Below, piece by piece: positions 1 through 56,955 of a DNA stretch of 64,000 bases (position 1 is the stretch's first letter; each line of letters starts with the position of its first letter). Source of the DNA: Sipunculus nudus. Its lineage: Eukaryota; Annelida; Sipuncula; Golfingiida; Sipunculidae. A program made the position numbers and the translations under genes. Location of the stretch: positions 1,945,318 to 2,009,317 of the forward strand of contig CM049314.1 of assembly GCA_026874595.1 (NCBI GenBank). The letters are read 5' to 3'. Under the pieces are notes generated by a model. That model had not been told where the DNA came from. It saw only the letters and a program-made list of their open reading frames with translations, and searched no databases.

Positions 1-386
1 TGCCGGTAGTAGACATTATACTTATACCGGCTCACGTAAACCGGTGTGTCGTGGTGCTAGTAGACATTATACATATACCGGCTCAGTTACATTGTGTGTC
101 AGTGGTGCTAGAAGACATTTTACAAATACCGGCTCAGGTAAACTAGTGTGTCGGGGATGCTAGTGGACAACATACAAAGGCCGGCTCAAGTAAACTAGTG
201 TGCCGTGGTGCTAGTAGACATTAAACAAATCCGGCACAGGTAAACTAGTGTGTCGGGTGTGCTAGTAGACATTATACATATACCGGCTGAGGTAAACTAG
301 ACTGTCTATGGGAAGATAGTAGACATTATACATAAACAGGCTCAGGTAAACTAGTGTGTCTTGGGTGCTAGTAGACATTAAACATA

Positions 387-400
387 TACCTGTACAGGTA
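387..400. repeat. Example of the palindromic monomer variant TACCTGTACAGGTA
   Basis: In the usual monomer this place reads TACCGGCTCAGGTA, with only 4-base inverted arms. A recurring variant reads TACCTGTACAGGTA, a perfect 14-bp palindrome. Further examples are at 747-760, 9,777-9,790, 22,364-22,377 and 22,416-22,429, and there are many more along the array. It is often followed by a monomer with TGATGTGCT in place of the G run, though 22,416 is an exception. Confidence 0.8.
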
Positions 401-914
401 AACTAATGTCTGATGTGCTAGTAGACATTATACATAAACTGGCTCAGGTAAACTAGTGTGTCGCGGTGCTAATAGACATTATACATATATTAGCTCAGGT
501 AAACTAGTGTGTCGGGGGTGCTAGTAGACATTAAACATATACCGGCTCAGGTTAACGAGGGTGTCACTGGTGCTAGTAGACATATACATATACCGGCTCA
601 GGTAAACTAGTGTGTCTGGGGTGCTAATGGACATTATACATATACCGGCACAGGTTAAGTAGTGTGTCGGGGGTGCTTGTAAACACTATACAAATAACGG
701 CACAGGTAAACTAGAGTGTCGGGGGTGCTAGTAGACATTAAACATATACCTGTACAGGTAAGCTATGTGTCTGATGTGCTAGTAGACATTATACATAAAC
801 CGGATCAGGTAAACTAGTGTGTCGGGGGTGCTAGTAGACATTATACAAATGCCGGCTTAGGTAAACTAGTGTGTCGGGGGTGCTAGTAGACATTATATAA
901 TTACAGGCTCAGGT

Positions 915-7147: not shown

Positions 7148-9904
7148 CCGGCTCAGGTAAATTAGTGCATCTGATGTGCTAGTAGACATTATACATTAAC
7201 CGGCTCAGGTAAACTAGTGTGTCAGGGGGGATAGTAGACATTATACTTATACCTGTACAGGTACACTAGTGTGTCAGGGGGGATAGTAGACATTATACTT
7301 ATACCTGTACAGGTAAACTAGTGTGTCGTAGCGCTAGTAGACATTATACATATACCGGCTCAGGTAAACTATTGTATCGAGGGTGCTAGTAGACATTATA
7401 CATATACTGGCTCAGGTAAACTAGTGTGTCTGGGGTGCTAGTAGAATTTAAACATATACCGGCTCAGGTTAACGAGTATGTCACTGGTGCTAGTAGACAT
7501 ATTCATATACCGGCTCAGGTAAATTAGTTTGTCTGGGGTGCTAGTAGACATTATACATATACCGGCATAGGTGAACTAGTGTGTCGGGGTGTTACTAGAC
7601 ATTATACATATACCAGCACACTTAAACTAGTGTGTCTGGGGGCTAGTAGACATTATATATGTACCGGCTCAGGTGAACTAGTATGTCAGGGGTGCTAGTA
7701 CACATTATACATATACCAGCACTGGTAAACAAGTGTGTCTGGGGGCTAGTATACATTATACATGTACCGGCTTAGGTAAACTAGTGTGTCGTGCCGGTAG
7801 TAGACATTATGCTTATACCGGCTCACGTAAACCGGTGTGTCGTGGTGCTAGTAGACATTATACATATACCGGCACAGGTGAACTAGTGTGTCAGGGGTGC
7901 TAGTAGACATTATACATACACCAGCACAGGTAAACTAGTGTGGCTGGGGGCCTAGTAGACATTATACATGTATCCGCTCAGGTAAACTAGTGTGTCGTGC
8001 TGTTAGTAGACATTATACTTATACCGGCTCAGGTAAACTAGTGTGTCGGGGGTGCTTGTAAACATTATACATATACCGGCACAGCTAAACTGGTGTGTCG
8101 GGTTGCTATTAGACATAATACATGTACCCGCTCAGGTAAACTAGTGTGTCGGGGTGCTAGTAGAAATTATACATAAACAGGCTCAGGTAAACTAGTGTGT
8201 CTTGGGTGCTAGTACACATTATAGATATACCGACACAGGAAAACTAGTGTGTCGGGGATGCAAGTAGACATTATACATATACCGGCTCAGATATACTAGT
8301 GTATCGCGGTGCTAGTAGACATTATACATATACCGGCACAGCTAAACTAGTGTGTCGGGTTGCTATTAGACATAATACATGTACCCGCTCAGGTAAACTA
8401 GTTTGTCGGGGTGCTAGTAGAAATTATACATAAACAGGCTCAGGTAAACTAGTGTGTCTTGGGTGCTAGTAAACATTTTACAAATGCCGGCTCAGGTAAA
8501 CTAGTGTGTCGGGGTGCCAGTAGACATTAAACATATACCGGCTGAGGTAAACTAGTGTGTCGGGGGTGCTAGTAGACATTGTACATAAACCGGCACAGGT
8601 AAACTAGTGTGTCGGGGGTGCTAGTAGACATTATACAAATGCCGGTTTAGGTGAACTAGTGTGTCGGTGGTGCTAGTAGACATTATACAAATGCCGGCTT
8701 AGGTGAACTAGTGTGTCGATGGTGCTAGTAGACATTATACAAATGCCGGTTTAGTTAAACTAGTATGTCGAGGGTGCTAGTAGACATTATATAAATACCG
8801 GCTCAGGTAAACTAGTGTGTCGGGGGTGCTTGTAAACATTATACTTATACCGGCACAGGTAAACTAGTGTGTCGGGTTGCTATTAGACATTATACATGTA
8901 CCCGCTCAGGTAAACTAGTGTGTCGGGTTGCTAGTAGAAGTTATACATAAACAGGCTCAGGTAATCTAGTGTGTCGGGGTGCTTGTAAACATTATACTTA
9001 TACCGGCACAGGTAAACTAGTGTGTCCGGTTGCTATTAGACATTATACATGTATGCGCTCAGGTAAACTAGTGTGTCGGGGTGCTAGTAGAAATTATACA
9101 TAAACAGGCTCAGGTAAACTAGTGTGTCGGGGGTGCTTGTAAACATTATACATATACCGGCACAGGTAAACTAGAGTGTCGGGGGTGCTAGTAGACATTA
9201 AACATATACCTGTACAGGTAAGCTATGTATCTGATGTGCTAGTAGACATTATACATAAACCGGATCAGGTAAACTAGTGTGTCGGGGGTGCTAGTAGACA
9301 TTATACAAATGCCGGCTTAGGTAAACTAGTGTGTCGGGGGTGCTAGTAGACATTATATAATTACAGGCTCAGGTAAACTAGTGTGTCAGGGGTGCTTGTA
9401 AACATTATACATATACCGGCACAGGTAAACTAGTGTGTCGAGTTGCTATTAGACATTATACATGTACCGGCTCAGTTAAATTGGTGTGTCAGTGGTGCTA
9501 GAAGACATTTTACAAATACCGGCTCAGGTAAACTAGTGTGTCGGGAAAGCTAGTAGACAACATACAAATGCCGGCTCAAGTAAACTAGTGTGCCGTGGTG
9601 CTAGTAGACATTAAACAAATCCGGCACAGGCAAATTAGTGTGTCGGGGGTGCTAGTAGACATTATACATATACCGGCTGAGGTAAACTAGACTGTCTATG
9701 GGATGATAGTAGACATTATACATAAACAGGCTCAGGTAAACTAGTGTGTCTTGGGTGCTAGTAGACATTATACATATACCTGTACAGGTAAACTAATGTC
9801 TGATGTGCTAGTAGACATTATACATAAACCGGCTCAGGTAAACTAGTGTGTCGGGGGTGCTAATAGATATTATACATATATTGGCTCAGGTAAACTAGTG
9901 TGTC

Positions 9905-12900
9905 TGGGGTGCTAGTGGACATTATACATATACCGGCACAGGTTAAGTAGTGTCTCTGGGATGCTAGTAGACATTATACATATACCGGCACAGGTGAACT
10001 AGTGTGTCAGGGGTGCTAGTAGACATTATACATACACCAGCACAGGTAAACTAGTGTGTCTGGGGGCCTAGTAGACATTATCCATGTATCCGCTCAGGTA
10101 AACTAGTGTGTCGTGCTGTTAGTAGACATTATACTTATACCGGCTCAGGTAAACTAGTGTGTCGGGGGTGCTTGTAAACATTATACATATACCGGCACAG
10201 CTAAACTAGTGTGTCGGGTTGCTATTAGACATAATACATGTACCCGCTCAGGTAAACTAGTGTGTCGGGGTGCTAGTAGAAATTTACATAAACAGGCTCA
10301 GGTAAACTAGTGTGTCTTGGGTGCTAGTACACATTATAGATATACCGACACAGGAAAACTAGTGTGTCGGGGATGCAAGTAGACATTATACATATACCGG
10401 CTCAGGTAAACTAGTGTATCGCGGTGCTAGTAGACATTTTACAAATACCGGCTCAGGTAAACTAGTGTGTCGGGGGTGCTAGTAGACATTATATAAATGC
10501 CGCCTTAGGTAAACTAGTGTGTCGGGGGTGCTAGTAGACATTATATAAATACAGGCTCAGGTAAACTAGTGTGTCGGGGGTGCTTGTAAACATTATACAT
10601 ATACCGACAAAGGTAAACTAGTGTGTCGGGTTGCTAATAGACATTATACATGTACCCGCTCAGGTAAACTAGTGTGTCGAGGGTACTAGTAAACATTTTA
10701 CAAATGCCGGCTCAGGTAAACTAGTGTGTCGGGGTGCCAGTAGACATTAAACATATACCGGCTCAGGTAAACTAGTGTGTCGGGGTGCTAGTAGACATTA
10801 TACATATACCGGCTGAGGTAAACTAGTGTGTCGGGGGTGCTAGTAGATATTGTACATAAACCGGCACAGGTAAACTAGTGTGTCGGGGGTGCTAGTTGAC
10901 ATTATACAAATGCCGGCTCAGGTGAACTAGTGTGTCGGTGGTGCTAGTAGACATTATACAAATGCCGGTTTAGTTAAACTAGTGTGTCGAGGGTGCTAGT
11001 AGACATTATATAAATACCGGCTCAGGTAAACTAGTGTGTCGGGGGTGCCTGTAAACATTATACTTATACCGGCACAGGTAAACTAGTGTGTCGGGTTGCT
11101 ATTAGACATTATACATGTACCCGCTCAGGTAAACTAGTGTGTCAGGGTGCTAGTAGAAGTTATACATAAACAGGCTCAGGTAATCTAGTGTGCCGGGGTG
11201 CTTGTAAACATTATACTTATACCGGCACAGGTAAACTAGTGTGTCCGGTTGCTATTAGACATTATACATGTATCCGCTCAGGTAAACTAGTGTGTCGGGG
11301 TGCTAGTAGAAATTATACATAAACAGGCTCAGGTAAACTAGTGTGTCGGGGGTGCTTGTAAACATAATACATATACCGGCACAGGTAAACTAGAGTGTCG
11401 GGGGTGCTAGTAGACATTAAACATATACCTGTACAGGTAAGCTATGTGTCTGATGTGCTAGTAGACATTATACATAAACCGGATCAGGTAAACTAGTGTG
11501 TCGGGGGTGCTAGTAGACATTATACATATACCGGCTCAGGTGATCTAGTGTGTCAGGGGTGCTAGTAGACATACATATACCGGCTCAGGTTAAGTAGTGT
11601 CTCTCGGGTGCTAGTAGACATTATACATATACCATCTCAGGTGATCTAGTGTGTCAGGGGTGCTAGTAGACATATACATATACCGGCACAGGTAAACTAG
11701 TGTGTCGTGCTGTTAGAAGACATTATACTTATACAGGTTCAGGTTAACTAGTATGTCACGGTGCTAGTACACATTACACATATACCGGTTCAGGTAAACT
11801 AGTGTGTGGGGGTGCCATTAGACATTAAACATATACCGGCTCAGGTAAACTAGTGTGTCGGGGGTACCATTAAACATTTTACAAATGCCGGCTCATGTAA
11901 ACTAGTGTGTCGGGGTGCCAGTAGACATTAAACATATACCGGCGCAGGTAAACTAGTGTGTCGGGGTGCTAGTAGACATTATACATATACCGGCTTAGGT
12001 AAACTAGTGTGTCGGGGGTGTTAGTAGACATTGTACATAAAATGGCTCAGGTAAACAAGTGTGTCGGGGTGCTAGTAGACATTATACAAATGCCGGCTTA
12101 GGTAAACTAGTGTGTCGGGGGTGCTAGTAGACATTATATAAATGCCGCCTTAGGTAAACTAGTGTGTCGGGGGTGCTAGTAGACATTATATAAATACAGG
12201 CTCAGGTAAACTAGTGTGTCGGGGGTGCTTGTAAACATTATACATATACCGGCAAAGGTAAACTAGTGTGTCGGGTTGCTAATAGACATTATACATGTAC
12301 CCGCTCAGGTAAACTAGTGTGTCGAGGGTACTAGTAAACATTTTACAAATGCCGGCTCAGGTAAACTAGTGTGTCGGGGTGCCAGTAGACATTAAACATA
12401 TACCGGCTCAGGTAAACTAGTGTGTCGGGGTGCTAGTAGACATTATACATATACCGGCTGAGGTAAACTAGTGTGTCGGGGGTGCTAGTAGATATTGTAC
12501 ATAAACCGGCACAGGTAAACTAGTGTGTCGGGGGTGCTAGTAGACATTATACAAATGCCGGCTCAGGTGAACTAGTGTGTCGGTGGTGCTAGTAGACATT
12601 ATACAAATGCCGGTTTAGTTAAACTAGTGTGTCGAGGGTGCTAGTAGACATTATATAAATACCGGCTCAGGTAAACTAGTGTGTCGGGGGTGCCTGTAAA
12701 CATTATACTTATACCGGCACAGGTAAACTAGTGTGTCGGGTTGCTATTAGACATTATTCATGTACCCGCTCAGGTAAACTAGTGTGTCAGGGTGCTAGTA
12801 GATGTTGTACATAAACAGGCTCAGGTAATCTAGTGTGCCGGGGTGCTTGTAAACATTATACTTATACCGGCACAGGTAAACTAGTGTGTCCGGTTGCTAT

Positions 12901-14665
12901 TAGACATTATACATGTATCCGCTCAGGTAAACTAGTGTGTCGGGGTGCTAGTAGAAATCATATATAAACAGGCTCAGGTAAACTAGTGTGTCGGGGGTGC
13001 TTGTAAACATAATACATATACCGGCACAGGTAAACTAGAGTGTCGGGGGTGCTAGTAGACATTAAACATATACCTGTACAGGTAAGCTATGTGTCTGATG
13101 TGCTAGTAGACATTATACATAAACCGGATCAGGTAAACTAGTGTGTCGGGGGTGCTAGTAGACATTATACATATACCGGCTCAGGTGATCTAGTGTGTCA
13201 GGGGTGCTAGTAGACATACATATACCGGCTCAGGTTAAGTAGTGTCTCTCGGGTGCTAGTAGACATTATACATATACCGGCTTAGGTGATCTAGTGTGTC
13301 AGGGGTGCTAGTAGACATACATATACCGGCTCAGGTTAAGTAGTGTCTCTCGGGTGCTAGTAGACATTATACATATACCGGCTCAGGTGATCTAGTGTGT
13401 CAGGGGTGCTAGTAGACATATACATATACCGGCACAGGTAAACTAGTGTGTCGTGCTGTTAGAAGACATTATACTTATACCGGTTCAGGTAAACTAGTAT
13501 GTCACGGTGCTAGTACACATTACACATATACCGGTTCAGGTAAACTAGTGTGTGGGGGTGCCATTAGACATTAAACATATACCGGCTCAGGTAAAGTAGT
13601 GTGTCGGGGGTACTAGTAAACATTTTACAAATGCCGGCTCATGTAAACTAGTGTGTCGGGGTGCCAGTAGACATTAAACATATACCGGCGCAGGTAAACT
13701 AGTGTGTCGGGGTGCTAGTAGACATTATACATATACCGGCTTAGGTAAACTAGTGTGTCGGGGGTGTTAGTAGACATTGTACATAAACCGGCTCAGGTAA
13801 ACTAGTGTGCCGGGGGTGCTAGTAGACATTATACAAATGCTGGCTCAGGTAAACTAGTGTGTCGGGGTGCTAGTAGACATTAAACATATACCGGCTCAGG
13901 TAAACCAGTTTGTCGGGGGTGCTAGTAGACATTATACATATACCGGCTCAGGTAAACTAGTGTGTCTGGGGTGCTAGTAGACATTATACATAAACCGGAT
14001 CAGGTAAACTAGTGTGTCGGGGGTGCTAGTAGACATAATACATATACCTGTACAGGTAAATTAGTGTGTCTGATGTGCTTGTAGACATTAAACATATACC
14101 TGTACAGGTAAACTAGTGTGTCGGGGGTGCTAATAGACATTATACATATACCGGCTCAGGTAAACTAGTGTGTCGTGGCGGTAGTAGACATTATACATAT
14201 ACTGGCTCAGGTAAATTAGTGCGTCTGATGTGCTAGTAGACATTATACATAAACCGGCTCAGGTAAACTAGTGTGTCAGGGGGATAGTAGACATTATACT
14301 TATACCTGTACAGGTAAACTTGTGTGTCGGGGGTGCTAGTAGACATTATACATATACTTGCTCAGGTAAACTAGTGTGTCGTAGCGCTAGTAGACATTAT
14401 ACATATACCGGCTCAGGTAAACTAGTGTATCGAGGGTGCTAGTAGACATTATACATATACTGGCTCAGGTAAACTAGTGTGTCTGGGGTGCTAGTAGAAT
14501 TTAAACATATACCGGCTCAGGTTAACGAGTATGTCACTGGTGCTAGTAGACATATACATATACCGGCTCAGGTAAATTAGTTTGTCTGGGGCGCTAGTAG
14601 ACATTATACATATACCGGCATAGGTGAACTAGTGTGTCGGGGTGTTACTAGACATTATACATATA
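9905..14665 (+). repeat. 4.8-kb block, partner of 35,635-40,500
   Basis: About 90 monomers in the same order reappear 25.73-25.83 kb downstream. The GATGCTAGTAG monomer is at 9,960/35,692 and the GGTGTTACTAG monomer at 14,641/40,474. The spacing grows by about 100 bp, or two monomers, across the block. The match ends where this copy has CAGCACACTTAAAC and the other has CAGCACAGGTGAAC. Small differences are scattered through the copies. Inside the block lies a two-copy 1,645-bp tandem. Confidence 0.8.
10455..13800 (+). repeat. 1,645-bp higher-order tandem duplication
   Basis: Two adjacent units of about 1,645 bp hold the same monomer order. TATAAATGCC lies at 10,492 and 12,137, and GGGTTGCTAA at 10,628 and 12,273. 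In the second unit a two-monomer segment (a CTCAGGTGATCTAG monomer followed by a CTCAGGTTAAGTAG monomer, about 104 bp) is present one more time than in the first, near 13,170-13,400. This shows local gain of monomer pairs. Confidence 0.8.
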
Positions 14666-16116
14666 CCAGCACACTTAAACTAGTGTGTCTGGGGGGCTAG
14701 TAGACATTATATATATACCGGCTCAGGTGAACTAGTATGTCAGGGGTGCTAGTAGACATTATACATTTACCGGCTCAGGTTAAGTAGTATCTCTGGGATT
14801 CTAGTAGACATTATACATATACCGGCACAGGTGAACTAGTGTGTCAGGGGTGCTAGTAGACATTATACATATACCAGCACTGGTAAACAAGTGTGTCTGG
14901 GGGCTAGTATACATTATACATATACCGGCACAGCTAAACTAGTGTGTCGGGTTGCTATTAGACATAATACATGTACCCGCTCAGGTAAACTACTGTGTCG
15001 GGGTGCTAGTAGAAATTATACATAAACAGGCTCAGGTAAACCGGTGTGTCGTGGTGCTAGTAGACATTATACATATACCGGCTCAGTTAAATTGGTGTGT
15101 CAGTGGTGCTAGAAGACATTCTACAAATACCGGCTCAGGTAAACTAGTGTGTCGGGGAAGCTAGTTGACAACATGCAAATTCCGGCTCAAATAAACTAGT
15201 GTGCCGTGGTGCTAGTAGACATTAAACAAATCCGGCACAGGCAAACTAATGTGTCGGGGGTGCTGGTAGACATTATACATATACCGGCTGAGGTAAACTA
15301 GACTGTCTATGGGATGATAGTAGACATTATACATAAACAGGCTTAGGTAAACTAGTGTGTCTTGGGTGCAAGTAGACATTATACATATACCTGTACAGGT
15401 AATCTAATGTCTGATGTGCTAGTAGATATTATACATAAACCGGCTCAGGTAAACTAGTGTGTCGGGGGTGCTAATAGACATTATACATACATTGGCTCAG
15501 GTAAACTAGTGTGTCGGGGGTGCTAGTAGACATTAAACATATACCGGCTCAGGTTAACGAGTGTGTCACTGGTGCTAGTAGACATATACATATACCGGCT
15601 CAGGTAAACTAGTGTGTCTGGGGTGCTAGTGGACATTATACATATACCGGCACAGGTTAAGTAGTGTCTCTGGGATGCTAGTAGACATTGTACATATACC
15701 GGCACAGGTGAACTAGTGTGTCAGGGGTGCTAGTAGACATTATACATACACCAACACAGGTAAACTAGTGTGTCTGGGGGCCTAGTAGACATTATACATG
15801 TATCCGCTCAGGTAAACTAGTGTGTCGTGCTGTTAGTAGACATTATACTTATACCGGCTCAGGTAAACTAGTGTGTCGGGGGTGCTTGTAAACATTATAC
15901 ATATACCGGCACAGCTAAACTAGTGTGTCGGGTTGCTATTAGACATAATACATGTACCCGCTCAGGTAAACTAGTGTGTCGGGGTGCTAGTAGAAATTAT
16001 ACACAAACAGGCTCAGGTAAACTAGTGTGTCTTGGGTGCTAGTACACATTATAGATATACTGACACAGGAAAACTAGTGTGTCGGGGATGCAAGTAGACA
16101 TTATACATATACCGGC

Positions 16117-19100
16117 TCAGGTAAACTAGTGTATCGCGGTGCTAGTAGACATTTTACAAATACCGGCTCAGGTAAACTAGTATGTCGGGGGTGCTAGTAG
16201 ACATTATATAAATGCCGCCTTAGGTAAACTAGTGTGTCGGGGGTGCTAGTAGACATTATATAAATACAGGCTCAGGTAAACTAGTGTGTCGGGGGTGCTT
16301 GTAAACATTATACATATACCGGCACAGGTAAACTAGTGTGTCGGGTTGCTATTAGACATTATACATGTACCCGCTCAGGTAAACTAGTGTGTCGGGGGTA
16401 CTAGTAAACATTTTACAAATGCCGGCTCAGGTAAACTAGTGTGTCGGGGTGCCAGTAGACATTAAACATATACCGGCTCAGGTAAACTAGTGTGTCGGGG
16501 TGCTAGTAGACATTATACATATACCGGCTGAGGTAAACTAGTGTGTCGGGGGTGCTAGTAGACATTGTACATAAACCGGCACAGGTAAACTAGTGTGTCG
16601 GGGGTGCTAGTAGACATTATACAAATGCCGTCTCAGGTGAACTAGTGTGTCGGTGGTGTTAGTAGACATTATACAAATGCCTGTTTAGTTAAACTAGTGT
16701 CTCGAGGGTGCTAGTAGACATTATATAAATACCGGCTCAGGTAAACTAGTGTGTCGGGGGTGCTTGTAAACATTATACTTATACCGGCACAGGTAAACTA
16801 GTGTGTCTGATGTGCTAGTAGACATACTAGTGTATCGGGGTGTTAGAAGACATTATACATATACCGGCTCAGGTTTAGTAGTGTCTCTCGGGTACTAGTA
16901 GACATTATACATATACCGGCTCAGGTGATCTAGTGTGTCAGGGGTGCTAGTAGACATATACATATACCGGCACAGGTAAACTAGTGTGTCGTGCTGTTAG
17001 AAGACATTATACTTATACCGGTTCAGGTTAACTAGCATGTCACGGTGCTAGTAGACATTACACATATACCGGCTCAGGTAAACTAGTGTGTCGGGGGTGC
17101 TAGTAGATATTTTACAAATACCTGATCAGGTAAACAAGTGTGTCGGGGGTGCTAGTAGACATTATACAAATGCCGGCTTAGGTAAACTAGTGTGTCGGGG
17201 GTGCTAGTAGACATTATATAATTACAGGCTCAGGTAAACTAGTGTGTCAGGGGTGCTTGTAAACATTATACATATACCGGCACAGGTAAACTAGTGTGTC
17301 GAGATGCTATTAGACATTATACATGTACCCGCTCAGGTAAACTAGTTTCTCGGGGTGCTAGTAGAAATTATACATAAACAGGCTCAGGTAAACTAGTGTG
17401 TCGGGGGTACTAGTAAACATTTTACAAATGCCGGCTCATGTAAACTAGTGTGTCGGGGTGCCAGTAGACATAAAACATATACCGGCGCAGGCAAACTAGT
17501 GTGACGGGGTGCTAGTAGACATTATACATATACCGGCTTAGGTAAACTAGTGTGTCGGGGGTGTTAGTAGACATTGTACATAAACCGGCTCAGGTAAACT
17601 AGTGTGTTGGGGGTGCTAGTAGACATTATACAAATGCTGGCTCTGGTAAACTAGTGTGTCGGGGTGCTAGTAGACATTAAACATATACCGGCTCAGGTAA
17701 ACCAGTTTGTCGGGGGTGCTAGTAGACATTATACATATACCGGCTCAGGTAAACTAGTGTGTCTGGGGTGCTAGTAGACATTATACATAAACCGGATCAG
17801 GTAAACTAGTGTGTCGGGGGTGCTAGTAGACATAATACATATACCTGTACAGGTAAATTAGTGTGTCTGATGTGCTTGTAGACATTAAACATATACCTGT
17901 ACAGGTAAACTAGTGTGTCGGGGGTGCTAATAGACATTATACATATACCGGCTCAGGTAAACTAGTGTGTCGTGGCGGTAGTAGACATTATACATATTCT
18001 GGCTCAGGTAAATTAGTGCGTCTGATGTGCTAGTAGACATTATACATAAACCGGCTCAGGTAAACTAGTGTGCCAGGGGGGATAGTAGACATTATACTTA
18101 TACCTGTACAGGTAAACTTGTGTGTCGGGGGTGCTAGTAGACATAATACATATACTTGCTCAGGTAAACTAGTGTGTCGTAGCGCTAGTAGACATTATAC
18201 ATATACCGGCTCAGGTAAACTAGTGTATCGAGGGTGCTAGTAGACATTATACATATACTGGCTCAGGTAAACTAGTGTGTCTGGGGTGCTAGTAGAATTT
18301 AAACATATACCGGCTCAGGTTAACGAGTATATCACTGGTGCTAGTAGACATATTCATATACCGGCTCAGGTAAATTAGTTTGTCTGGGGTGCTAGTAGAC
18401 ATTATACATATACCGGCATAGGTGAACTAGTGTGTCGGGGTGTTACTAGACATTATACATATACCAGCACACTTAAACTAGTGTGTCTGGGGGGCTAGTA
18501 GACATTATATATGTACCGGCTCAGGTGAACTAGTATGTCAGGGGTGCTAGTAGACATTATACATTTACCGGCTCAGGTTAAGTAGTGTCTCTGGGATTCT
18601 AGTAGACATTATACATATACCGGCACAGGTGATCTAGTGTGTCAGGGGTGCTAGTAGACATTATACATATACCAGCACTGGTAAACAAGTGTGTCTGGGG
18701 GCTAGTATACATTATACATATACCGGCACAGCTAAACTAGTGTGTCGGGTTGCTATTAGACATAATACATGTACCCGCTCAGGTAAACTAGTGTGTCGGG
18801 GTGCTAGTAGAAATTATACATAAACAGGCTCAGGTAAACCGGTGTGTCGTGGTGCTAGTAGACATTATACATATACCGGCTCAGTTAAATTGGTGTGTCA
18901 GTGGTGCTAGAAGACATTTTACAAATACCGGCTCAGGTAAACTAGTGTATCGCGGTGCTAGTAGACATTTTACAAATACCGGCTCAGGTAAACTAGTATG
19001 TCGGGGGTGCTAGTAGACATTATATAAATGCCGCCTTAGGTAAACTAGTGTGTCGGGGGTGCTAGTAGACATTATATAAATACAGGCTCAGGTAAACTAG

Positions 19101-35530: not shown

Positions 35531-35634
35531 GTCGGGGGTGCTAGTAGACATTAAACAAATACCGGCTCAGGTTAACGAGTGTGTCACTGGTGCTAGTAGA
35601 AATATACATATACCGGCTCAGGTAAACTAGTGTG

Positions 35635-40500: not shown

Positions 40501-41659
40501 AGCACAGGTGAACTAGTGTGTCAGGGGTGCTAGTAGACATTATACATGTATCCGCTCAGGTAAACTAGTGTGTCGTGCTGTTAGTAGACATTATACTTAT
40601 ACCGGCTCAGGTAAACTAGTGTGTCGGGGGTGCTTGTAAACATTATACATATACCGGCACAGCTAAACTAGTGTGTCGGGTTGCTATTAGACATAATACA
40701 TGTACCCGCTCAGGTAAACTAGTGTGTCGGGGTGCTAGTAGAAATTATACACAAACAGGCTCAGGTAAACTAGTGTGTCTTGGGTGCTAGTACACATTAT
40801 AGATATACTGACACAGGAAAACTAGTGTGTCGGGGATGCAAGTAGACATTATACATATACCGGCTCAGGTAAACTAGTGTATCGCGGTGCTAGTAGACAT
40901 TTTACAAATACCGGCTCAGGTAAATTAGTATGTCGGGGGTGCTAGTAGACATTATATAAATGCCGCCTTAGGTAAACTAGTGTGTCGGGGGTGCTAGTAG
41001 ACATTATATAAATACAGGCTCAGGTAAACTAGTGTGTCGGGGGTGCTTGTAAACATTATACATATACCGGCACAGGTAAACTAGTGTGTCGGGTTGCTAT
41101 TAGACATTATACATGTACCCGCTCAGGTAAACTAGTGTGTCGGGGGTACTAGTAAACATTTTACAAATGCCGGCTCAGGTAAACTAGTGTGTCGGGGTGC
41201 CAGTAGACATTAAACATATACCGGCTCAGGTAAACTAGTGTGTCGGGGTGCTAGTAGACATTATACATATACCGGCTGAGGTAAACTAGTGTGTCGGGGG
41301 TGCTAGTAGACATTGTACATAAACCGGCACAGGTAAACTAGTGTGTCGGGGGTGCTAGTAGACATTATACAAATGCCGTCTCAGGTGAACTAGTGTGTCG
41401 GTGGTGTTAGTAGACATTATACAAATGCCTGTTTAGTTAAACTAGTGTCTCGAGGGTGCTAGTAGACATTATATAAATACCGGCTCAGGTAAACTAGTGT
41501 GTCGGGGGTGCTTGTAAACATTATACTTATACCGGCACAGGTAAACTAGTGTGTCTGATGTGCTAGTAGACATACTAGTGTATCGGGGTGTTAGAAGACA
41601 TTATACATATACCGGCTCAGGTTTAGTAGTGTCTCTCGGGTACTAGTAGACATTATACA

Positions 41660-46000: not shown

Positions 46001-48190
46001 TAGTAGACATTATACAAATGCCTGTTTAGTTAAACTAGTGTCTCGAGGGTGCTAGTAGACATTATATAAATACCGGCTCAGGTAAACTAGTGTGTCGGGG
46101 GTGCTTGTAAACATTATACTTATACCGGCACAGGTAAACTAGTGTGTCTGATGTGCTAGTAGACATACTAGTGTATCGGGGTGTTAGAAGACATTATACA
46201 TATACCGGCTCAGGTTTAGTAGTGTCTCTCGGGTACTAGTAGACATTATACATATACCGGCTCAGGTGATCTAGTGTGTCAGGGGTGCTAGTAGACATAT
46301 ACATATACCGGCACAGGTAAACTAGTGTGTCGTGCTGTTAGAAGACATTATACTTATACCGGTTCAGGTTAACTAGCATGTCACGGTGCTAGTAGACATT
46401 ACACATATACCGGCTCAGGTAAACTAGTGTGTCGGGGGTGCTAGTAGATATTTTACAAATACCTGATCAGGTAAACAAGTGTGTCGGGGGTGCTAGTAGA
46501 CATTATACAAATGCCGGCTTAGGTAAACTAGTGTGTCGGGGGTGCTAGTAGACATTATATAATTACAGGCTCAGGTAAACTAGTGTGTCAGGGGTGCTTG
46601 TAAACATTATACATATACCGGCACAGGTAAACTAGTGTGTCGAGATGCTATTAGACATTATACATGTACCCGCTCAGGTAAACTAGTTTCTCGGGGTGCT
46701 AGTAGAAATTATACATAAACAGCCTCAGGTAAACTAGTGTGTCGGGGGTGCTTGTAAACATTATACATATACCGGCACAGGTAAACTAGTGTGTCGGGGG
46801 TGCTAGTAGGCTTTAAACATATACCTGTACAGGTAAGATTTGTGTCTGATGTGCTAGTAGACAATATACATAAACCGGATCAGGTAAACTAGAGTGTCGG
46901 GGGTGCTAGTAGACATTATACATATACCTGTTCAAGTAAACTAGTGTGTCTGATGTGCTAGTAGACATACATATACCGGCTCAGGTAAGCTAGTGTGTCG
47001 GGGGTGTAAGTAGACATTATATATATACTGGCTCAGGTAAACTAGTGTGTCGTGGCGCTAGTAGACATTATACATATACCGGCTCAGGTAAACTAGTGTA
47101 TTGGGGGTGCTAGTAGACATTATACATATACCGGCTCAGGTGATCTAGTGTGTCAGGGGTGCTAGTAGACATATACATATACCGGCACAGGTAAACTAGT
47201 GTGTCGTGCTGTTAGAAGACATTATACTTATACCGGTTCAGGTTAACTAGTATGTCACGGTGCTAGTACACATTACACATATACCGGTTCAGGTAAACTA
47301 GTGTGTGGGGGTGCCATTAGACATTAAACATATACCGGCTCAGGTAAACTAGTGTGTCGGGGGTACTAGTAAACATTTTACAAATGCCGGCTCATGTAAA
47401 CTAGTGTGTCGGGGTGCCAGTAGACATAAAACATATACCGGCGCAGGTAAACTAGTGTGACGGGGTGCTAGTAGACATTATACATATACCGGCTTAGGTA
47501 AACTAGTGTGTCGGGGGTGTTAGTAGACATTGTACATAAAGCGGCTCAGGTAAACTAGTGTGTCGGGGGTGCTAGTAGACATTATACAAATGCTGGCTCT
47601 GGTAAACTAGTGTGTCGGGGTGCTAGTAGACATTAAACATATACCGGCTCAGGTAAACCAGTTTGTCGGGGGTGCTAGTAGACATTATACATATACCGGC
47701 TCAGGTAAACTAGTGTGTCTGGGGTGCTAGTAGACATTATACATAAACCGGATCAGGTAAACTAGTGTGTCGGGGGTGCTAGTAGACATAATACATATAC
47801 CTGTACAGGTAAATTAGTGTGTCTGATGTGCTTGTAGACATTAAACATATACCTGTACAGGTAAACTAGTGTTTCGGGGGTGCTAATAGACATTATACAT
47901 ATACCGGCTCAGGTAAACTAGTGTGTCGTGGCGGTAGTAGACATTATACATATACTGGCTCAGGTAAATTAGTGCGTCTGATGTGCTAGTAGACATTATA
48001 CATAAACCGGCTCAGGTAAACTAGTGTGCCAGGGGGGATAGTAGACATTATACTTATACCTGTACAGGTAAACTTGTGTGTCGGGGGTGCTAGTAGACAT
48101 AATACATATACTTGCTCAGGTAAACTAGTGTGTCGTAGCGCTAGTAGACATTATACATATACCGGCTCAGGTAAACTAGTGTATCGAGGG
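43075..48190 (+). repeat. 2,710-bp higher-order repeat, two copies
   Basis: Copies run about 43,075-45,480 and 45,785-48,190. Several markers show the same shift: TGCCAGTAGAC at 43,081/45,791, CGTGCTGTTAG at 43,621/46,331 and 44,495/47,205, and the truncated GTAGACATACTAGTGT monomer at 43,449/46,159. About 300 bp between the copies (45,481-45,784) are monomers found in other blocks, such as those near 16.2-16.4 kb and 41 kb. Differences between copies are few, for example ACACATTATAC near 45,281 against AGACATTATAC. Confidence 0.83.
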
Positions 48191-51100
48191 TGCTAGTAGA
48201 CATTATACATATACTGGCTCAGGTAAACTAGTGTGTCTGGGGTGCTAGTAGAATTTAAACATATACCGGCTCAGGTTAACGAGTATATCACTGGTGCTAG
48301 TAGACATATTCATATACCGGCTCAGGTAAATTAGTTTGTCTGGGGTGCTAGTAGACATTATACATATACCGGCATAGGTGAACTAGTGTGTCGGGGTGTT
48401 ACTAGACATTATACATATACCAGCACACTTAAACTAGTGTGTCTGGGGGGCTAGTAGACATTATATATGTACCGGCTCAGGTGAACTAGTATGTCAGGGG
48501 TGCTAGTAGACATTATACATTTACCGGCTCAGGTTAAGTAGTGTCTCTGGGATTCTAGTAGACATTATACATATACCGGCACAGGTGATCTAGTGTGTCA
48601 GGGGTGCTAGTAGACATTATACATATACCAGCACTGGTAAACAAGTGTGTCTGGGGGCTAGTATACATTATACATATACCGGCACAGCTAAACTAGTGTG
48701 TCGGGTTGCTATTAGACATAATACATGTACCCGCTCAGGTAAACTAGTGTGTCGGGGTGCTAGTAGAAATTATACATAAACAGGCTCAGGTAAACCGGTG
48801 TGTCGTGGTGCTAGTAGACATTATACATATACCGGCTCAGTTAAATTGGTGTGTCAGTGGTGCTAGAAGACATTTTACAAATACCGGCTCAGGTAAACTA
48901 GTGTGTCGGGGAAGCTAGTTGACAACATACAAATGCCGGCTCAAGTAAACTAGTGTGCCGTGGTGCTAGTAGACATTAAACAAATCCGGCACAGGCAAAC
49001 TAGTGTGTCGGGGGTGCTAGTAGACATTATACATATACCGGCTGAGGTAAACTAGACTGTCTATGGGATGATAGTAGACATTATACATAAACAGGCTCAG
49101 GTAAACTAGTGTGTCTTGGGTGCAAGTAGACATTATACATATACCTGTACAGGTAATCTAATGTCTGATGTGCTAGTAGACATTATACATAAACCGGCTC
49201 AGGTAAACTAGTGTGTCGGGGGTGCTAATAGACATTATACATATATTGGCTCAGGTAAACTAGTGTGTCGGGGGTGCTAGTAGACATTAAACATATACCG
49301 GCTCAGGTAAACGAGTGTGTCACTGGTGCTAGTAGACATATACATATACCGGCTCAGGTAAACTAGTGTGTCTGGGGTGCTAGTGGACATTATACATATA
49401 CCGGCACAGGTTAAGTAGTGTCTCTGGGATGCTAGTAGACATTATACATATATCGGCACAGGTGAACTAGTGTGTCAGGGGTGCTAGTAGACATTATACA
49501 TGTATCCGCTCAGGTAAACTAGTGTGTCGTGCTGTTAGTAGACATTATACTTATACCGGCTCAGGAAAACTAGTGAGTCGGGGGTGCTTGTAAACATTAT
49601 ACATATACCGGCACAGCTAAACTAGTGTGTCGGGTTGCTATTAGACATAATACATGTACCCGCTCAGGTAAACTAGTGTGTCGGGGTGCTAGTAGAAATT
49701 ATACACAAACAGGCTCAGGTAAACTAGTGTGTCACGGGTGCTAGTACACATTATAGATATACTGACACAGGAAAACTAGGGTGTCGGGGATGCAAGTAGA
49801 CATTATACATATACCGGCTCAGGTAAACTAGTGTATCGCGGTGCTAGTAGACATTTTACAAATACCGGCTCAGGTAAACTAGTATGTCGGGGTTGCTAGT
49901 AGACATTATATAAATGCCCCCTTAGGTAAACTAGTGTGTCGGGGGTGCTTGTAAACATTATACATATACCGGCACAGGTAAACTAGTGTGTCGGGTTGCT
50001 ATTAGACATTATACATGTACCCGCTCAGGTAAACTAGTGTGTCGGGGGTACTAGTAAACATTTTACAAATGCCGGCTCAGGTAAACTAGTGTGTCGGGGT
50101 GCCAGTAGACATTAAACATATACCGGCTCAGGTAAACTAGTGTGTCGGGGTGCTAGTAGACATTATACATATACCGGCTGAGGTAAACTAGTGTGTCGGG
50201 GGTGCTAGTAGACATTGTACATAAACCGGCACAGGTAAACTAGTGTGTCGGGGGTGCTAGTAGACATTATACAAATGCCGGCTCAGGTGAACTAGTGTGT
50301 CGGTGGTGCTAGTAGACATTATACAAATGCCGGTTTAGTTAAACTAGTGTCTCGAGGGTGCTAGTAGACTAAAATAAATACCGGCTCAGGTAAACTAGTG
50401 TGTCGGGGGTGCTTGTAAACATTATACTTATACCGGCACAGGTAAACTAGTGTGTCTGATGTGCTAGTAGACATACTAGTGTGTCGGGGTGTTAGAAGAC
50501 ATTATACATATACCGGCTCAGGTTAAGTAGTGTCTCTCGGGTACTAGTAGACATTATACATATACCGGCTCAGGTGATCTAGTGTGTCAGGGGTGCTAGT
50601 AGACATATACATATACCGGCACAGGTAAACTAGTGTGTCGTGCTGTTAGAAGACATTATACTTATACCGGTTCAGGTTAACTAGCATGTCACGGTGCTAG
50701 TAGACATTACACATATACCGGCTCAGGTAAACTAGTGTGTCGGGGGTGCTAGTAGATATTTTACAAATACCTGATCAGGTAAACAAGTGTGTCGGGGGTG
50801 CTAGTAGACATTATACAAATGCCGGCTTAGGTAAACTAGTGTGTCGGGGGTGCTAGTAGACATTATATAATTACAGGCTCAGGTAAACTAGTGTGTCAGG
50901 GGTGCTTGTAAACATTATACATATACCGGCACAGGTAAACTAGTGTGTCGAGTTGCTATTAGACATTATACATGTACCCGCTCAGGTAAACTAGTGTCTC
51001 GGGGTGCTAGTAGAAATTATACATAAACAGGCTCAGGTAAACTAGTGTGTCGGGGGTGCTTGTAAACATTATACATATACCGGCACAGGTAAACTAGTGT

Positions 51101-52905
51101 GTCGGGGGTGCTAGTAGGCTTTAAACAAATACCTGTACAGGTAAGATTTGTGTCTGATGTGCTAGTAGACAATATACATAAAAACCGGATCAGGTAAACT
51201 AGAGTGTCGGGGGTGCTAGTAGACATTATACATATACCTGTACAAGTAAACTAGTGTGTCTGATGTGCTAGTAGACATACATATACCGGCTCAGGTAAGC
51301 TAGTGTGTCGGGGGTGTTAGTAGACATTATATATATACTGGCTCAGGTAAACTAGTGTGTCGTGGCGCTAGTAGACATTATACATATACCGGCTCAGGTA
51401 AACTAGTGTATTGGGGGTGCTAGTAGACATTATACATATACTGGCTCAGGTAAACTAGTGTGTCTGGGGTGCTAGTAGACATTATACATATACCGGCACA
51501 GGTGAACCAGTGTATCGGGGTGTTAGAAGACATTATACATATACCGGCTCAGGTAAACTAGTGTCTCTGGGGTGCTAGTAGACATTATACATATACCGGC
51601 TCAGGTTAACTAGTGTGTCAGGGGTGCTAGTAGACATATACATATACCGGCAGAGGTAAACTAGTGTATCGTGCTGTTAGTAGACATAATACTTATACCG
51701 GTTCAGGTAAACTAGTATATCGTGGTGCTAGTAGACATTATACATATACCGGCTTAGGTAAACTAGTGTGTCGGGGGTGCTAGTAGATATTTTACAAATA
51801 CCTGCTCAGGTAAACTAGTGTGTCGGGGGTGCTAGTCGACATCATACAAATGCCGGTTCAGGTAAACTAGTGGGTGGGGGTGCCATTAGACATTAAACAT
51901 ATACCGGCTCAGGTAAACTAGTGTGTCGGGGCTGCTAGTAGACATTATACATATACCGGCTGAGGTAAACTAGTGTGTCTGGGGTGATAGTAGACATTAT
52001 ACATAAACCGGCTCAGGTAAATTAGTGTGTCGGGGGTCTAGTAGACATAATACATATACCTGTACAGGTAAACTAGTGTGTCTGATGTGCTAGTAGACAT
52101 TATACATAAACCAACTCAGGTAAACTAGTGTGTCGGGGGTGCTAGTAAACATTTTACAAATGCCGGCTCATTTAAACTAGTGTGTCCGGGTGCCAGTAGA
52201 CATTAAACATATACCGGCTCAGGTAAACTAGTGTGTCGGGGGTGCTAGTAGACATTATACATATACCGGCTCAGGTGATCTAGTGTGTCAGGGGTGCTAG
52301 TAGACATATACATATACCGGCACAGGTAAACTAGTGTGTCGTGCTGTTAGAAGACATTATACTTATACCGGTTCAGGTTAACTAGCATGTCACGGTGCTA
52401 GTAGACATTACACATATACCGGCTCAGGTAAACTAGTGTGTCGGGGGTGCTAGTAGATATTTTACAAATACCTGATCAGGTAAACAAGTGTGTCGGGGGT
52501 GCTAGTAGACATTATACAAATGCCGGCTTAGGTAAACTAGTGTGTCGGGGGTGCTAGGAGACATTATATAATTACAGGCTCAGGTAAACTAGTGTGTCAG
52601 GGGTGCTTGTAAACATTATACATATACCGGCACAGGTAAACTAGTGTGTCGAGTTGCTATTAGACATTATACATGTACCCGCTCAGGTAAACTAGTGTCT
52701 CGGGGTGCTAGTAGAAATTATACATAAACAGGCTCAGGTAAACTAGTGTGTCGGGGGTGCTTGTAAACATTATACATATACCGGCACAGGTAAACTAGTG
52801 TGTCGGGGGTGCTAGTAGGCTTTAAACATATACCTGTACAGGTAAGATTTGTGTCTGATGTGCTAGTAGACAATATACATAAACCGGATCAGGTAAACTA
52901 GAGTG
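48108..52905 (+). repeat. 4.7-kb block, partner of 30,836-35,530
   Basis: This is the downstream copy of the block at 30.8-35.5 kb, offset by 17.27-17.37 kb. Relative to its partner it has about 100 extra bases near 51,490-51,590 (a GTGAACCAGTGTATCGGGG monomer and its neighbour). It also has private substitutions such as GACTAAAATAAATACC near 50,368. Its left end overlaps the second 2,710-bp copy by a short stretch, because both contain the same ordered monomers. Confidence 0.82.
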
Positions 52906-54205
52906 TCGGGGGTGCTAGTAGACATTATACATATACCTGTACAAGTAAACTAGTGTGTCTGATATGCTAGTAGACATACATATACCGGCTCAGGTAAGTT
53001 AGTGTGTCGGGGGTGTTAGTAGACATTATATATATACTGGCTCAGGTAAACTAGTGTGTCGTGGCGCTAGTAGACATTATACATATACCGGCTCAGGTAA
53101 ACTAGTGTATTGGGGGTGCTAGTAGACATTATACATATACTGGCTCAGGTAAACTAGTGTGTCTGGGGTGCTAGTAGACATTATACATATACCGGCACAG
53201 GTGAACCAGTGTATCGGGGTGTTAGAAGACATTATACATATACCGGCTCAGGTAAACTAGTGTCTCTGGGGTGCTAGTAGACATTATATATATACCGGCT
53301 CAGGTTAACTAGTGTGTCGGGGGTGCTAGTAGACATTAAACATATACCGGTACAGTTGAACCAGTGTATCGGGGTGTTAGAAGACATTATACATATACCG
53401 GCTTAGGTTACGTAGTGTCTCTGGGGTGCTAGTAGACATTATACATATCCCGACTCAGGTAAACTAGTATGTCAGGGGTGCTAGTAGACATTATACATAT
53501 ACCGGCACAGGTAAACTAGTGTGTCGGGGGTGCTAGTAGGCTTTAAACATATACCTGTACAGGTAAGATTTGTGTCTGATGTGCTAGTAGACAATATACA
53601 TAAACCGGATCAGGTAAACTAGAGTGTCGGGGTGCTAGTAGACATTATACATATACCTGTACAAGTAAACTAGTGTGTCTGATATGCTAGTAGACATACA
53701 TATACCGGCTCAGGTAAGTAAGTGTGTCGGGGGTGTTAGTAGACATTATATATATACTGGCTCAGGTAAACTAGTGTGTCGTGGCGCTAGTAGACATTAT
53801 ACATATACCGGCTCAGGTAAACTAGTGTATTGGGGGTGCTAGTAGACATTATACATATACTGGCTCAGGTAAACTAGTGTGTCTGGGGTGCTAGTAGACA
53901 TTATACATATACCGGCACAGGTGAACCAGTGTATCGGGGTGTTAGAAGACATTATACATATACCGGCTCAGGTAAACTAGTGTCTCTGGGGTGCTAGTAG
54001 ACATTATACATATACCGGCTCAGGTTAACTAGTGTGTCGGGGGTGCTAGTAGACATTAAACATATACCGGTACAGTTGAACCAGTGTATCGGGGTGTTAG
54101 AAGACATTATACATATACCGGCTTAGGTTACGTAGTGTCTCTGGGGTGCTAGTAGACATTATACATATACCGGCTCAGGTTAACTAGTGTGTCGGGGGTG
54201 CTAGT
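52765..54205 (+). repeat. 720-bp higher-order tandem duplication
   Basis: Two adjacent copies, about 52,765-53,485 and 53,486-54,205, match closely. GCTAGTAGGCTTT is at 52,811 and 53,532 (721 bp), and GTGAACCAGT at 53,201 and 53,921 (720 bp); one G is lost from a G run in the second copy near 53,630. Other differences noticed are AAGTTAGTG/AAGTAAGTG near 52,999/53,719 and ATTATATATATACC/ATTATACATATACC near 53,285/54,005. Confidence 0.85.
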
Positions 54206-56955
54206 AGACATTAAACATATACCGGTACAGGTAAACTAGTGTGTCGTGCTGTTAGTAGACATTAAACATATACCGGCACAGGTGAACCAGTGTATCGGGG
54301 TGTTAGAAGACATTATACATATACCGGCTGAGGTAAACTAGTGTGTCTGGGGTGATAGTAGACATTATACATAAACCGGCTCAGGTAAATTAGTGTGTCG
54401 GGGGTCTAGTAGACATAATACATATACCTGTACAGGTAAACTAGTGTGTCTGATGTGCTAGTAGACATTATACATAAACCAACTCAGGTAAACTAGTGTG
54501 TCGGGGGTGCTAGTAAACATTTTACAAATGCCGGCTCATTTAAACTAGTGTGTCCGGGTGCCAGTAGACATTAAACATATACCGGCTCAGGTAAACTAGT
54601 GTGTCGGGGGTGCTAGTAGACATTATACATATACCGGCTGAGGTAAACTAGTGTGTCGGGGGTGCTAGTAGACATTAAACATATACCGGTACAGTTGAAC
54701 CAGTGTATCGGGGTGTTAGAAGACATTATACATATACCGGCTTAGGTTATGTAGTGTCTCTGGGGTGCTAGTAGACATTATACATATCCCGACTCAGGTG
54801 AACTAGTATGTCAGGGGTGCTAGTAGACATATACATATACCGGTACAGGTAAACTAGTGTGTCGTGCTGTTAGTAGACATTAAACATATACCGGCACAGG
54901 TGAACCAGTGTATCGGGGTGTTAGAAGACATTATACATATACCGGCTGAGGTAAATTAGTGTGTCGGGGGTGCTAGTAGACATTGTACATAAACCGGCTC
55001 AGGTAAACTAGTGTGTACGGGGTGCTTGTAGACATTATACATAAACCGGCTCAGGCAAACTAGTGTGTCATGGGGGCTAGTAGACATTATCCATATACCG
55101 GCTCAGGTAAACTAGTGTGTCGGGGTGCTTGTAGACATTATACATAAACCGGCTCAGGCAAACTAGTGTGTCATGGGGGCTAGTAGACATTATACATATA
55201 CCTGTATAGGTAAACTTGTGTGTCGGGGGTGCTTATTCACATTATACATATACCCCCTTAGGTAAACTAGTGTGTCATGGCGGTAGTAGACATTATACAT
55301 ATACTGGCTCAGGTAAATTAGTGTGTCTGATGTGCTAGTAGACATTATACATAAACCGGCTCAGGTAAACTAGTGTGTCAGGGGGGCCAGTAGACATTAT
55401 ACTTATACCTGTACAGGTAAAATTGTGTGTCGGGGGTCCTAGTAGACATTATACATATACTTGATAAGGTAAACTAGTGTGTCGTTGCGCTAGAAGACAT
55501 TATACATATACCGGCTCAGGTTAAGTAGTGTCTCTGCGGTGCTAGTAGACATTATAGATATCCCAACTCAGGTGAACTAGTGTGTCAGGGATGCTAGTAG
55601 ACATAAACATATACCGGCACAGGTAAACTAGTGTGTCGTGCTGTTAGTAGACATTATACATAAACCAGCTCAGGTAAACTAGTGTGTCGGGAGTGCTCGT
55701 AGATATTTTACAAATACCTGCTCAGGTAAACTAGTGTGTCGGGGGTGCTAGTCGATATTATACATATACTGGCTGAGGTAAACTAGTGTGTGGGGTGCTA
55801 GTAGACATTATACATATACCTGCTGAGGTAAACTAGTGTGTATGGGGTGCTAGTAGACATTATACATAAACCGGCTCAGGTAAACTAGTGTGTCGGGGGT
55901 GCTAGTAGACATAATACATATATACCTGTACAGGTAAACTAGTGTGTCTGATGTGCTAGTAGACATTATACATACACCGGCTCAGGTAAACTAGTGTGTC
56001 GGGGGTACTAGTAAACATTTTACAAATGCTGGCTCAGGTAAACTAGTGTGTCGGGGTGCCAGTAGACATTAAACATATACCGGCTCAGGTAAACTAGTGT
56101 GTCGGGGGTGCTAGTAGACATTTTACATATACCGGCTGAGGTAAACTAGTGTGTCGGGGGTGCTAGTAGACATTGTTCATAAACCGGCTCAGGTAAACTA
56201 GTATGTCGGGGGTGCTAGTAGACATAATACAAATGCCGGCTCAGGTAAACTAGTGTGTCGATGGTGCTAGTAGACATTATACAAATGCCGGTTTAGTTAA
56301 ACTAGTGTATCGGGGGTGCTAGTAGACATTATATAAATACCGGCTCAGGTAAACTAGTGTGTCGGGGGTGCTTGTAAACATTATACTTATACCGGCACAG
56401 GTAAACTAGTGTGTCGGTTGCTATTAGACATTATACATGTACCCGCTCAGGTAAACTAGTGTGTCGGGGTGCTAGTAGAAATTATACATAAACAGGCTCA
56501 GGTAAACTAGTGTGTCGGGGGTGCTTGTTAACATTATACTTATACCGGCAGAGGTAAACTAGTCTGTCGGGTTGCTATAAGACATTATACATGTACCCGC
56601 TCAGGTAAACTAGTGTGTCGGGGTGCTAGTAGAAATTATACATAAACAGGCTCAGGTAAACTAGTGTCGGGGGTGCTAGTAGACATTATACATATACCGA
56701 CACAGGAAAACTAGTGTTCCGGGTGTGCTAGTAGACATTATTTTATATATAACGGCTCAGGGAAACTAGTGTGTCTTGGATACTAGTAGACATTATACAT
56801 ATACCGATACAGGTAAACTAGTGTGTCGGTGTGCTAGTAGACATTATAAATTTACCGGTAGGTAAAATAGTGTGCAGGGGTGCTGGCAGACATTATTCAT
56901 ATATGGGTACAGGTAAACTAGTGTGTCGGGGGTGCCAGTAGAAACTATACATATA
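54206..56955 (+). repeat. Right edge of the satellite array, progressively irregular
   Basis: From about 54.2 kb monomers stop fitting a clean higher-order period. From about 56,660 they carry many private changes: ATTATTTTATATATAACGG near 56,738, a shortened ACCGGTAGGTAAAATAG near 56,852, and ATATATGGGTACAGG near 56,900. The last recognisable piece is GTAGAAACTATACATATAC ending at about 56,955. The sequence then changes abruptly to TTTATCTCATTC and unique DNA. This is the only true array boundary in the window. Confidence 0.85.

What the first reader, a model, noticed from the sequence alone, without database searches (positions are those of the whole stretch)
1..56955. A 57-kb satellite with at least three nested levels of organisation
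The sequence shows about 1,100 same-orientation 52-bp monomers. Variant monomers recur in fixed order at 0.7-3.4 kb periods, and blocks of 4.7-4.8 kb recur 17 and 26 kb apart. Such higher-order structure is best known from centromeric satellites such as primate alpha satellite, and is less often described for monomers this short in invertebrates. A centromeric or heterochromatic role is inference.
Basis: partly seen in the sequence, partly recalled or inferred. Interest (0 to 1): 0.75.

Follow-up and report, generated by a model that had tools for sequence, protein, structure and literature searches.

The report
Transposon-derived satellite grown by block copying
A 103-kb stretch of about 2,000 copies of a 52-base unit, found at one place in this animal's 1.4-billion-base genome, looks like a fragment of a small scattered mobile element that was copied head to tail and then grew by duplicating large blocks; it is probably not a centromere repeat.

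Summary
The window carries the right-hand 57 kb (1,107 monomers) of one 102,865-bp array of 1,998 same-strand 52-bp monomers. Variant order is far from random: 31% of 10-monomer words recur, against 0 in 200 shuffles. The reported 4.7-4.8 kb blocks, 17 and 26 kb apart, are real (99.0% and 99.5% identical). But there is no regular higher-order repeat: among lags 1-1499 none has over 6.7% identical monomers, no block stands more than about 2.9 times in tandem, and neighbours are no more alike than random pairs. The array is a mosaic of block duplications; 97.2% of monomers lie in at least one. A 48-base core (up to 3 mismatches) occurs 573 times in the 1.43-Gb genome, all in this array, 1.9 Mb from a contig end. 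A 21-base core occurs 285 times elsewhere, on both strands; the listed rows touch all 17 large contigs. Twenty-five fetched copies fit a roughly 240-bp interspersed element with inverted-repeat ends. Two smaller arrays (51-bp units on C10, 88-bp on C1) use overlapping parts of it. Best reading: a single-locus satellite seeded by a MITE-like element, expanded by in-register block exchange. Transposon-derived satellites are known in bivalves.

The parts
1..56955 (+). right-hand 57 kb (1,107 monomers) of the 102,865-bp, 52-bp-monomer array C9:1899408-2002272; the array continues left beyond the window
9883..14668 (+). block copy A of the pair at offset 25,732 bp, 99.5% identical over 93 monomer pairs
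35615..40501 (+). block copy B of the pair at offset 25,732 bp
30841..35563 (+). block copy A of the pair at offset 17,272 bp, 99.0% identical over 92 monomer pairs
48113..52937 (+). block copy B of the pair at offset 17,272 bp
16114..21745 (+). 55-monomer block (2,816 bp) in direct tandem duplicate, over 99.9% identical on aligned monomer columns
   Evidence: C9:1961431 and 1964247
21746..30686 (+). 65-monomer (3,359-bp) block, about 2.7 tandem copies, 99.9%
54636..56955 (+). right edge of the array: a 26-monomer run from 54636 and the last 5 monomers (56699-56955) belong to no detected duplicated block; the left end of the whole array has 17 such monomers
56960..57289 (+). a different dispersed repeat that abuts the array end (pieces match seven fetched loci, 69-77%)

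Best explanation
The array is a single-locus satellite born from the core of a short interspersed, MITE-like element. Shown: the 52-bp monomer aligns to model columns 88-141 of an interspersed element of about 240 bp with inverted-repeat ends; the core occurs 285 times outside this locus on both strands; two further arrays (51-bp and 88-bp units) come from overlapping parts of the same core and run into the element's right half. Shown: the array is a mosaic of block duplications, with offsets from 8 monomers (0.4 kb) upward, kept in monomer register. Inferred: after first tandemisation, unequal exchange or break-induced copying between misaligned arrays repeatedly duplicated and deleted blocks, while monomer-scale slippage contributed little. 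Inferred: the array has no sequence-encoded function of its own and behaves as near-neutral tandem DNA close to ordinary genes.
For: Single locus: 573 of 573 matches, 0 reverse, control 0/0. Dispersed core: 615 forward and 145 reverse at up to 2 mismatches, control 0/0, 475 of them in the 194 kb around the array, so 285 elsewhere. Inverted-repeat ends: 5' end in 13 of 25 fetched copies and 3' end in 11 of 25, against 2 and 5 of 300 random pieces; 5' end genome-wide 87 forward / 69 reverse, control 0/0. Monomer against the element model E=2.2e-14; C10 array 2.1e-29 (columns 82-252) and C1 array 1.8e-20 (columns 82-194), E-values for the small sets searched. Block copying: 759 diagonal blocks, 97.2% of 1,998 monomers covered, none in two order shuffles. 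No slippage signal: lag-1 identity 0.828 against permuted 0.830 (sd 0.0007); 2 of 1,997 neighbours identical, 10.1 expected. Register kept: 18 of 1,998 monomers shorter than 49 or longer than 54 bases, 8 distinct. No stop-to-stop frame over 77 codons in the window's array.
Against: At this array itself the rest of the element was not recognised: only a weak blastn trace of the right half 11 bp past the array end (E=0.37, in a stretch that matches another repeat family better) and a model match running about 11 bases past the end; so birth in place is inferred. The 25 copies were chosen by the core pattern, which inflates conservation of the core itself. None of 8 copies with both ends located shows an 8-bp target-site duplication (one had only 6 bases downstream), so the element's class is open. 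Exchange and break-induced copying cannot be told apart from one assembly. The simulations were single runs; two of four missed the observed mean identity, a run with 1-100-monomer tracts gave only a slight neighbour excess (0.857 against 0.848), and all four kept fewer distinct monomers (43-108 of 600) than observed (532 of 1,998). Assembly error was not tested with reads.
Confidence: 0.75

Rival explanations
1. The array is the centromere (or pericentromere) of this one chromosome: a chromosome-specific centromeric satellite with young higher-order structure.
For: It is long, uninterrupted (no N in 194 kb) and recently block-duplicated. [quoted passage not shown]
Against: No match to its 48-base core on the other 16 large contigs at up to 3 mismatches; 1.9 Mb from the end of a 79.8-Mb contig; lectin and PAN exons 4.7-6.5 kb away; no exact CENP-B box in the 103-kb array on either strand; no homogenised n-mer.
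Confidence: 0.06
2. A functional non-coding locus: the array is transcribed or binds a factor (the core GTAAACA resembles the forkhead motif, recalled) and acts as a repeat RNA or boundary, like single-locus macrosatellites (recalled).
For: Single locus and uniform strand; some monomer columns are 97-99% conserved.
Against: A close form of the same core is scattered in 285 other places; mean identity to the consensus is 0.90 and flat along the array; no long reading frame. No transcription data were available either way.
Confidence: 0.1
3. An ordinary satellite of independent origin; the likeness to the dispersed element is convergence, or the dispersed copies descend from the satellite.
For: Element halves were not recognised at this array's edges. 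1,543 of 1,998 monomers carry CTAG, while 5 of the 6 off-array rows listed for the CTAG-type pattern carry CAAG.
Against: About 49 aligned bases in fixed order and strand (E=2.2e-14); fetched dispersed copies have flanks and inverted ends that the satellite lacks; the C1 and C10 arrays run into the element.
Confidence: 0.08
4. Assembly artefact: misplaced or duplicated reads created the near-identical blocks.
For: Some blocks are 99.9% identical or more; reads were not available.
Against: No N in the 194 kb; the 625 blocks of 10 or more monomers span many ages, 94.6 to 99.97% identity; the array runs into other sequence on both sides without a gap.
Confidence: 0.06

Closest known systems
MITE-internal tandem repeats and derived satellites (Xstir and miDNA4 in Xenopus; tandem-repeat MITEs of the clam Donax trunculus), as reviewed in PMC12628747
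   Same: Tandem units derive from, or sit inside, a short non-autonomous element; element, composite and pure-array forms occur together (here C10 and C1 composite, C9 pure array).
   Different: Three loci amplified different but overlapping parts of one core (51, 52, 88 bp), and one reached about 2,000 copies. Parent element class unproven. Review passages seen; the Donax paper is known to me only from reference lists and was not held.
Crassostrea gigas satellitome, including Helitron/Helentron-linked satellites (PMC8268682, PMC7492417)
   Same: Mobile-element-linked satellites in a bivalve; some restricted to a single chromosome (passages of PMC8268682; PMC7492417 listing and start of abstract only).
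   Different: Longest array named there is 232 monomers, about 40 kb; here 1,998 monomers, 103 kb, and the parent element has inverted-repeat ends.
Primate alpha-satellite higher-order repeats (recalled)
   Same: Variant monomers recur in fixed order; young blocks are nearly identical.
   Different: No fixed n-mer and at most about 2.9 tandem block copies, one chromosome only, 52-bp rather than 171-bp unit.
Single-locus macrosatellites such as human DXZ4 or D4Z4 (recalled)
   Same: One large array at one locus.
   Different: Those have kilobase units with known transcripts or factor sites; none shown here.

Membership tests
Satellite DNA derived from an interspersed (MITE-like) element | Monomer homologous to part of a dispersed element | tested here: met
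   E=2.2e-14 to the model of 25 dispersed copies; 285 core matches outside this locus
Satellite DNA derived from an interspersed (MITE-like) element | Array still embedded in the element's remaining parts | tested here: inconclusive
   Right half found at the C10 and C1 arrays; not recognised at this array's edges beyond weak traces
MITE of the hAT superfamily | Terminal inverted repeats | tested here: met
   13 of 25 5' ends and 11 of 25 3' ends against 2 and 5 of 300; that the lettering is hAT-like is recalled
MITE of the hAT superfamily | 8-bp target-site duplication | tested here: not met
   0 of 8 copies with both ends located; best 2 matching positions; one copy had only 6 bases downstream; copies are old and ends approximate
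MITE of the hAT superfamily | Matching autonomous transposase in the genome | tested here: inconclusive
   150 scored hAT dimerisation-domain matches of 667 candidates; no link to these ends tested
Alpha-satellite-like higher-order repeat | Fixed n-mer repeated many times and homogenised | tested here: not met
   Best lag 6.7% identical; at most about 2.9 tandem copies
Centromeric satellite | Present on most chromosomes | tested here: not met
   573 of 573 matches in one array
Centromeric satellite | CENP-A nucleosomes | not testable with these tools
   Needs ChIP or CUT&Tag
Centromeric satellite | CENP-B box (optional feature, recalled motif) | tested here: not met
   0 exact on either strand; 1 at up to one mismatch, 81 at up to two; no null run
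Protein-coding tandem repeat | Open frame through the repeats | tested here: not met
   Longest stop-to-stop frame 77 codons in the window's array

The most novel reading that the evidence does not exclude
The core of this scattered element is a recurrent seed for satellites. It has turned into head-to-tail arrays at least three times with different unit lengths (51, 52, 88 bp), perhaps helped by the 9-bp-stem hairpin in the element's consensus core. At C9 it has passed into a self-sustaining regime in which blocks of 8 or more monomers are exchanged: a satellite caught at one locus before spreading.
Probability: 0.3. Interest if true: 0.55.

Novelty: new member of a known kind. Interest (0 to 1): 0.38.

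Why it matters
It shows satellite birth with its parts still in view: parent element, two small arrays that run into element copies, and one large array with its duplication history readable block by block. Because neighbours carry no extra similarity, it suggests that such an array grows by large in-register copying rather than by slippage of single monomers. It also warns that long, hierarchical tandem DNA need not be centromeric.

Tried and rejected
Centromere-wide satellite: rejected, one locus only. Regular higher-order repeat: rejected, no dominant lag. Coding repeat: rejected. Conserved hairpin: the element's consensus core folds (DNA, z -2.9), but pairing across the 25 copies is no better than re-dealt arms (0.787 against 0.786), and the C9 monomer does not fold (z +1.0), so no structural selection is claimed. 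Element halves at the C9 edges: sought by blastn and nhmmer, not recognised beyond weak traces. Self-blast for blocks gave no rows with two settings (cause not found) and was replaced by monomer-level alignment. A search for single-locus block-duplicated satellites in print gave two forensic papers. A search for hAT-derived satellites was seen as a listing only, so I do not claim the case is absent from print.
Full report
Location. The window is C9:1945318-2009317 of a 1,426,538,692-bp genome in 153 contigs. Contigs C1-C17 are 61-111 Mb; C18 and C19 are under 0.1 Mb; C9 is 79.8 Mb. The array does not begin in the window. Fetching 100 kb to the left and 30 kb to the right shows it runs from C9:1899408 to 2002272, 102,865 bp, with no N in 194 kb.

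Monomers. Cyclic alignment gives 1,998 monomers, all on the + strand; 1,147 are 52 bp and 722 are 51 bp; mean identity to the consensus is 0.90 and flat along the array. There are 537 distinct monomer sequences. Eighteen of 1,998 monomers are shorter than 49 or longer than 54 bases, in 8 distinct forms, so breaks of register are rare.

Order. In the whole array 31.2% of 10-monomer words and 14.8% of 20-monomer words recur, against 0 in 200 order shuffles; for the window alone 29.1% and 15.3%, also 0 in 200. 759 diagonal blocks were found, covering 97.2% of 1,998 monomers; two order shuffles gave no diagonal that reached the same score. Within the window alone there are 206 blocks covering 95.9% of 1,107 monomers. 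The longest pairs include 6.3 kb at offset 9.8 kb, 5.6 kb at offset 3,359 bp (99.9%) and a 4,802-bp tandem pair (99.9%) left of the window.

Not a regular higher-order repeat. Among lags 1-1499 the best (191 monomers) has 6.7% exactly identical monomers, against 0.5% by chance. Fifteen blocks are nearly or fully tandem (length at least 0.9 of the lag), none over about 2.9 copies. Lag-1 identity is 0.828, against 0.830 (sd 0.0007) in 200 permutations, and 2 of 1,997 neighbours are identical where 10.1 are expected. The smallest lag with a block is 8 monomers. In single-run simulations, exchange of 1-3 monomers made neighbours far more alike than pairs in general (0.990 against 0.938), exchange of 1-100 slightly so (0.857 against 0.848), and exchange of 20-150 not (0.846 against 0.847). 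The 1-3 and 8-100 runs missed the target mean identity, and all four runs kept fewer distinct monomers than the real array, so this is illustrative only. The monomers that belong to no block lie mostly near the two ends (17 left; 3, 26 and 5 within the last 2.8 kb), with one run of 3 inside, as expected if exchange is rarer at edges.

One locus. A 48-base core with up to 3 mismatches occurs 573 times on one strand and 0 on the other, control 0/0; all 573 lie in this array. A 25-base core (up to 3 mismatches) occurs 1,225 times, 1,191 of them here, 34 elsewhere.

The parent element. A 21-base form of the core with CAAG in place of CTAG (up to 2 mismatches) occurs 760 times, 475 here and 285 elsewhere (140 forward, 145 reverse), control 0/0; the 100 rows listed touch all 17 large contigs. 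The 285 include the C1 array and 8 sites in the C10 locus. Twenty-five off-array copies were fetched, all chosen from the best core matches, which inflates conservation of the core. Conservation extends beyond the pattern on both sides: inverted-repeat ends, a G-rich stretch, the core, then a longer right half. A 5' end was found in 13 of 25 and a 3' end in 11 of 25, against 2 and 5 of 300 random pieces. The 5' end occurs 87 forward / 69 reverse in the genome, control 0/0. Eight copies had both ends located, giving lengths of 186-277 bp, and 0 of 8 show an 8-bp target duplication (one had only 6 bases downstream). The ends look hAT-like by recall only, so I do not file the element as hAT. The genome has many hAT transposase domains (150 scored of 667 candidates), not linked to it here.

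Other arrays. C10:27.909-27.912 Mb holds 51-bp units and C1:24.720-24.723 Mb holds 88-bp units with the same core. The model matches the C10 array's end over columns 82-252 and the C1 array's end over 82-194, that is, beyond the repeated part into the element's right half. The repeated parts differ: about columns 83-127 (C10), 88-141 (C9), 81-159 (C1). Exact tandem-core searches found 1 pair on C10, 36 on C1 and none elsewhere; these patterns exclude the CTAG form and diverged arrays, so more may exist. At C9 the right edge abuts another dispersed repeat and the left edge follows a G run; no element half was recognised, apart from a blastn trace at E=0.37 and a model match running about 11 bases past the right end.

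Hairpin. The element's consensus core can form a 9-bp stem with a 10-base loop (z -2.9). Published models of MITE tandemisation invoke stem-loops (passages of PMC12628747 and PMC8268682). Pairing is not maintained across copies and is lost in the C9 monomer.

Surroundings. Downstream, two minus-strand open frames match Lectin_C and PAN. The left flank has frames with DDE_1, HTH_psq and Tc5 domains and a zf-RVT match; the right flank has an RVT_1 match. Fourteen selected frames were scanned in all, so the gene list is partial. No doubled TTAGGG or its complement occurs in the 194 kb. CpG observed/expected is 0.64 in the array and 0.72 in its flanks. Chromatin state is unknown.

Verdict. A real, large and well-structured array, explained as a single-locus satellite derived from an interspersed element and enlarged by block duplication. 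The centromere reading lacks support but needs CENP-A data to close. Transposon-derived satellites are known in bivalves (listings and passages), so this is a new member of a known kind, unusual for its size and for the visible parent and sister arrays.

Noticed in passing
C1:24719700-24723401 and C10:27908900-27912200 (L086 in part, L085): Two further tandem arrays (88-bp and 51-bp units) that share the core of the 52-bp monomer and run into the parent element's right half.
   Followed up: partly
window 56960-57289: Another dispersed repeat family begins within about 5 bp of the array's right end; pieces match 11 contigs at 72-90% identity.
   Followed up: partly
window 58037-58154: 33-bp tandem repeat, 3.6 copies at 96%, each unit with a TGACGTGA motif (cAMP-response-like, recalled).
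   Followed up: no
window 61662-61919 and 62970-63410 (minus strand): Open frames with C-type lectin and PAN domains, probably exons of one gene, 4.7-6.5 kb from the array end.
   Followed up: partly
C9:1878169-1880284 (L012): Open frames with DDE_1, HTH_psq and Tc5 domains: probably a pogo/Tc5-type transposase about 20 kb left of the array.
   Followed up: no
array C9:1899408-2002272: Adjacent identical monomers are rarer than chance (2 against 10.1 expected); cause unknown, perhaps instability of identical neighbours.
   Followed up: no
C4:75554506-75621780: Six listed copies of the element's 5' end with the same single mismatch, five of them about 6.9 kb apart: possibly a tandemly duplicated larger unit carrying the element.
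   Followed up: no
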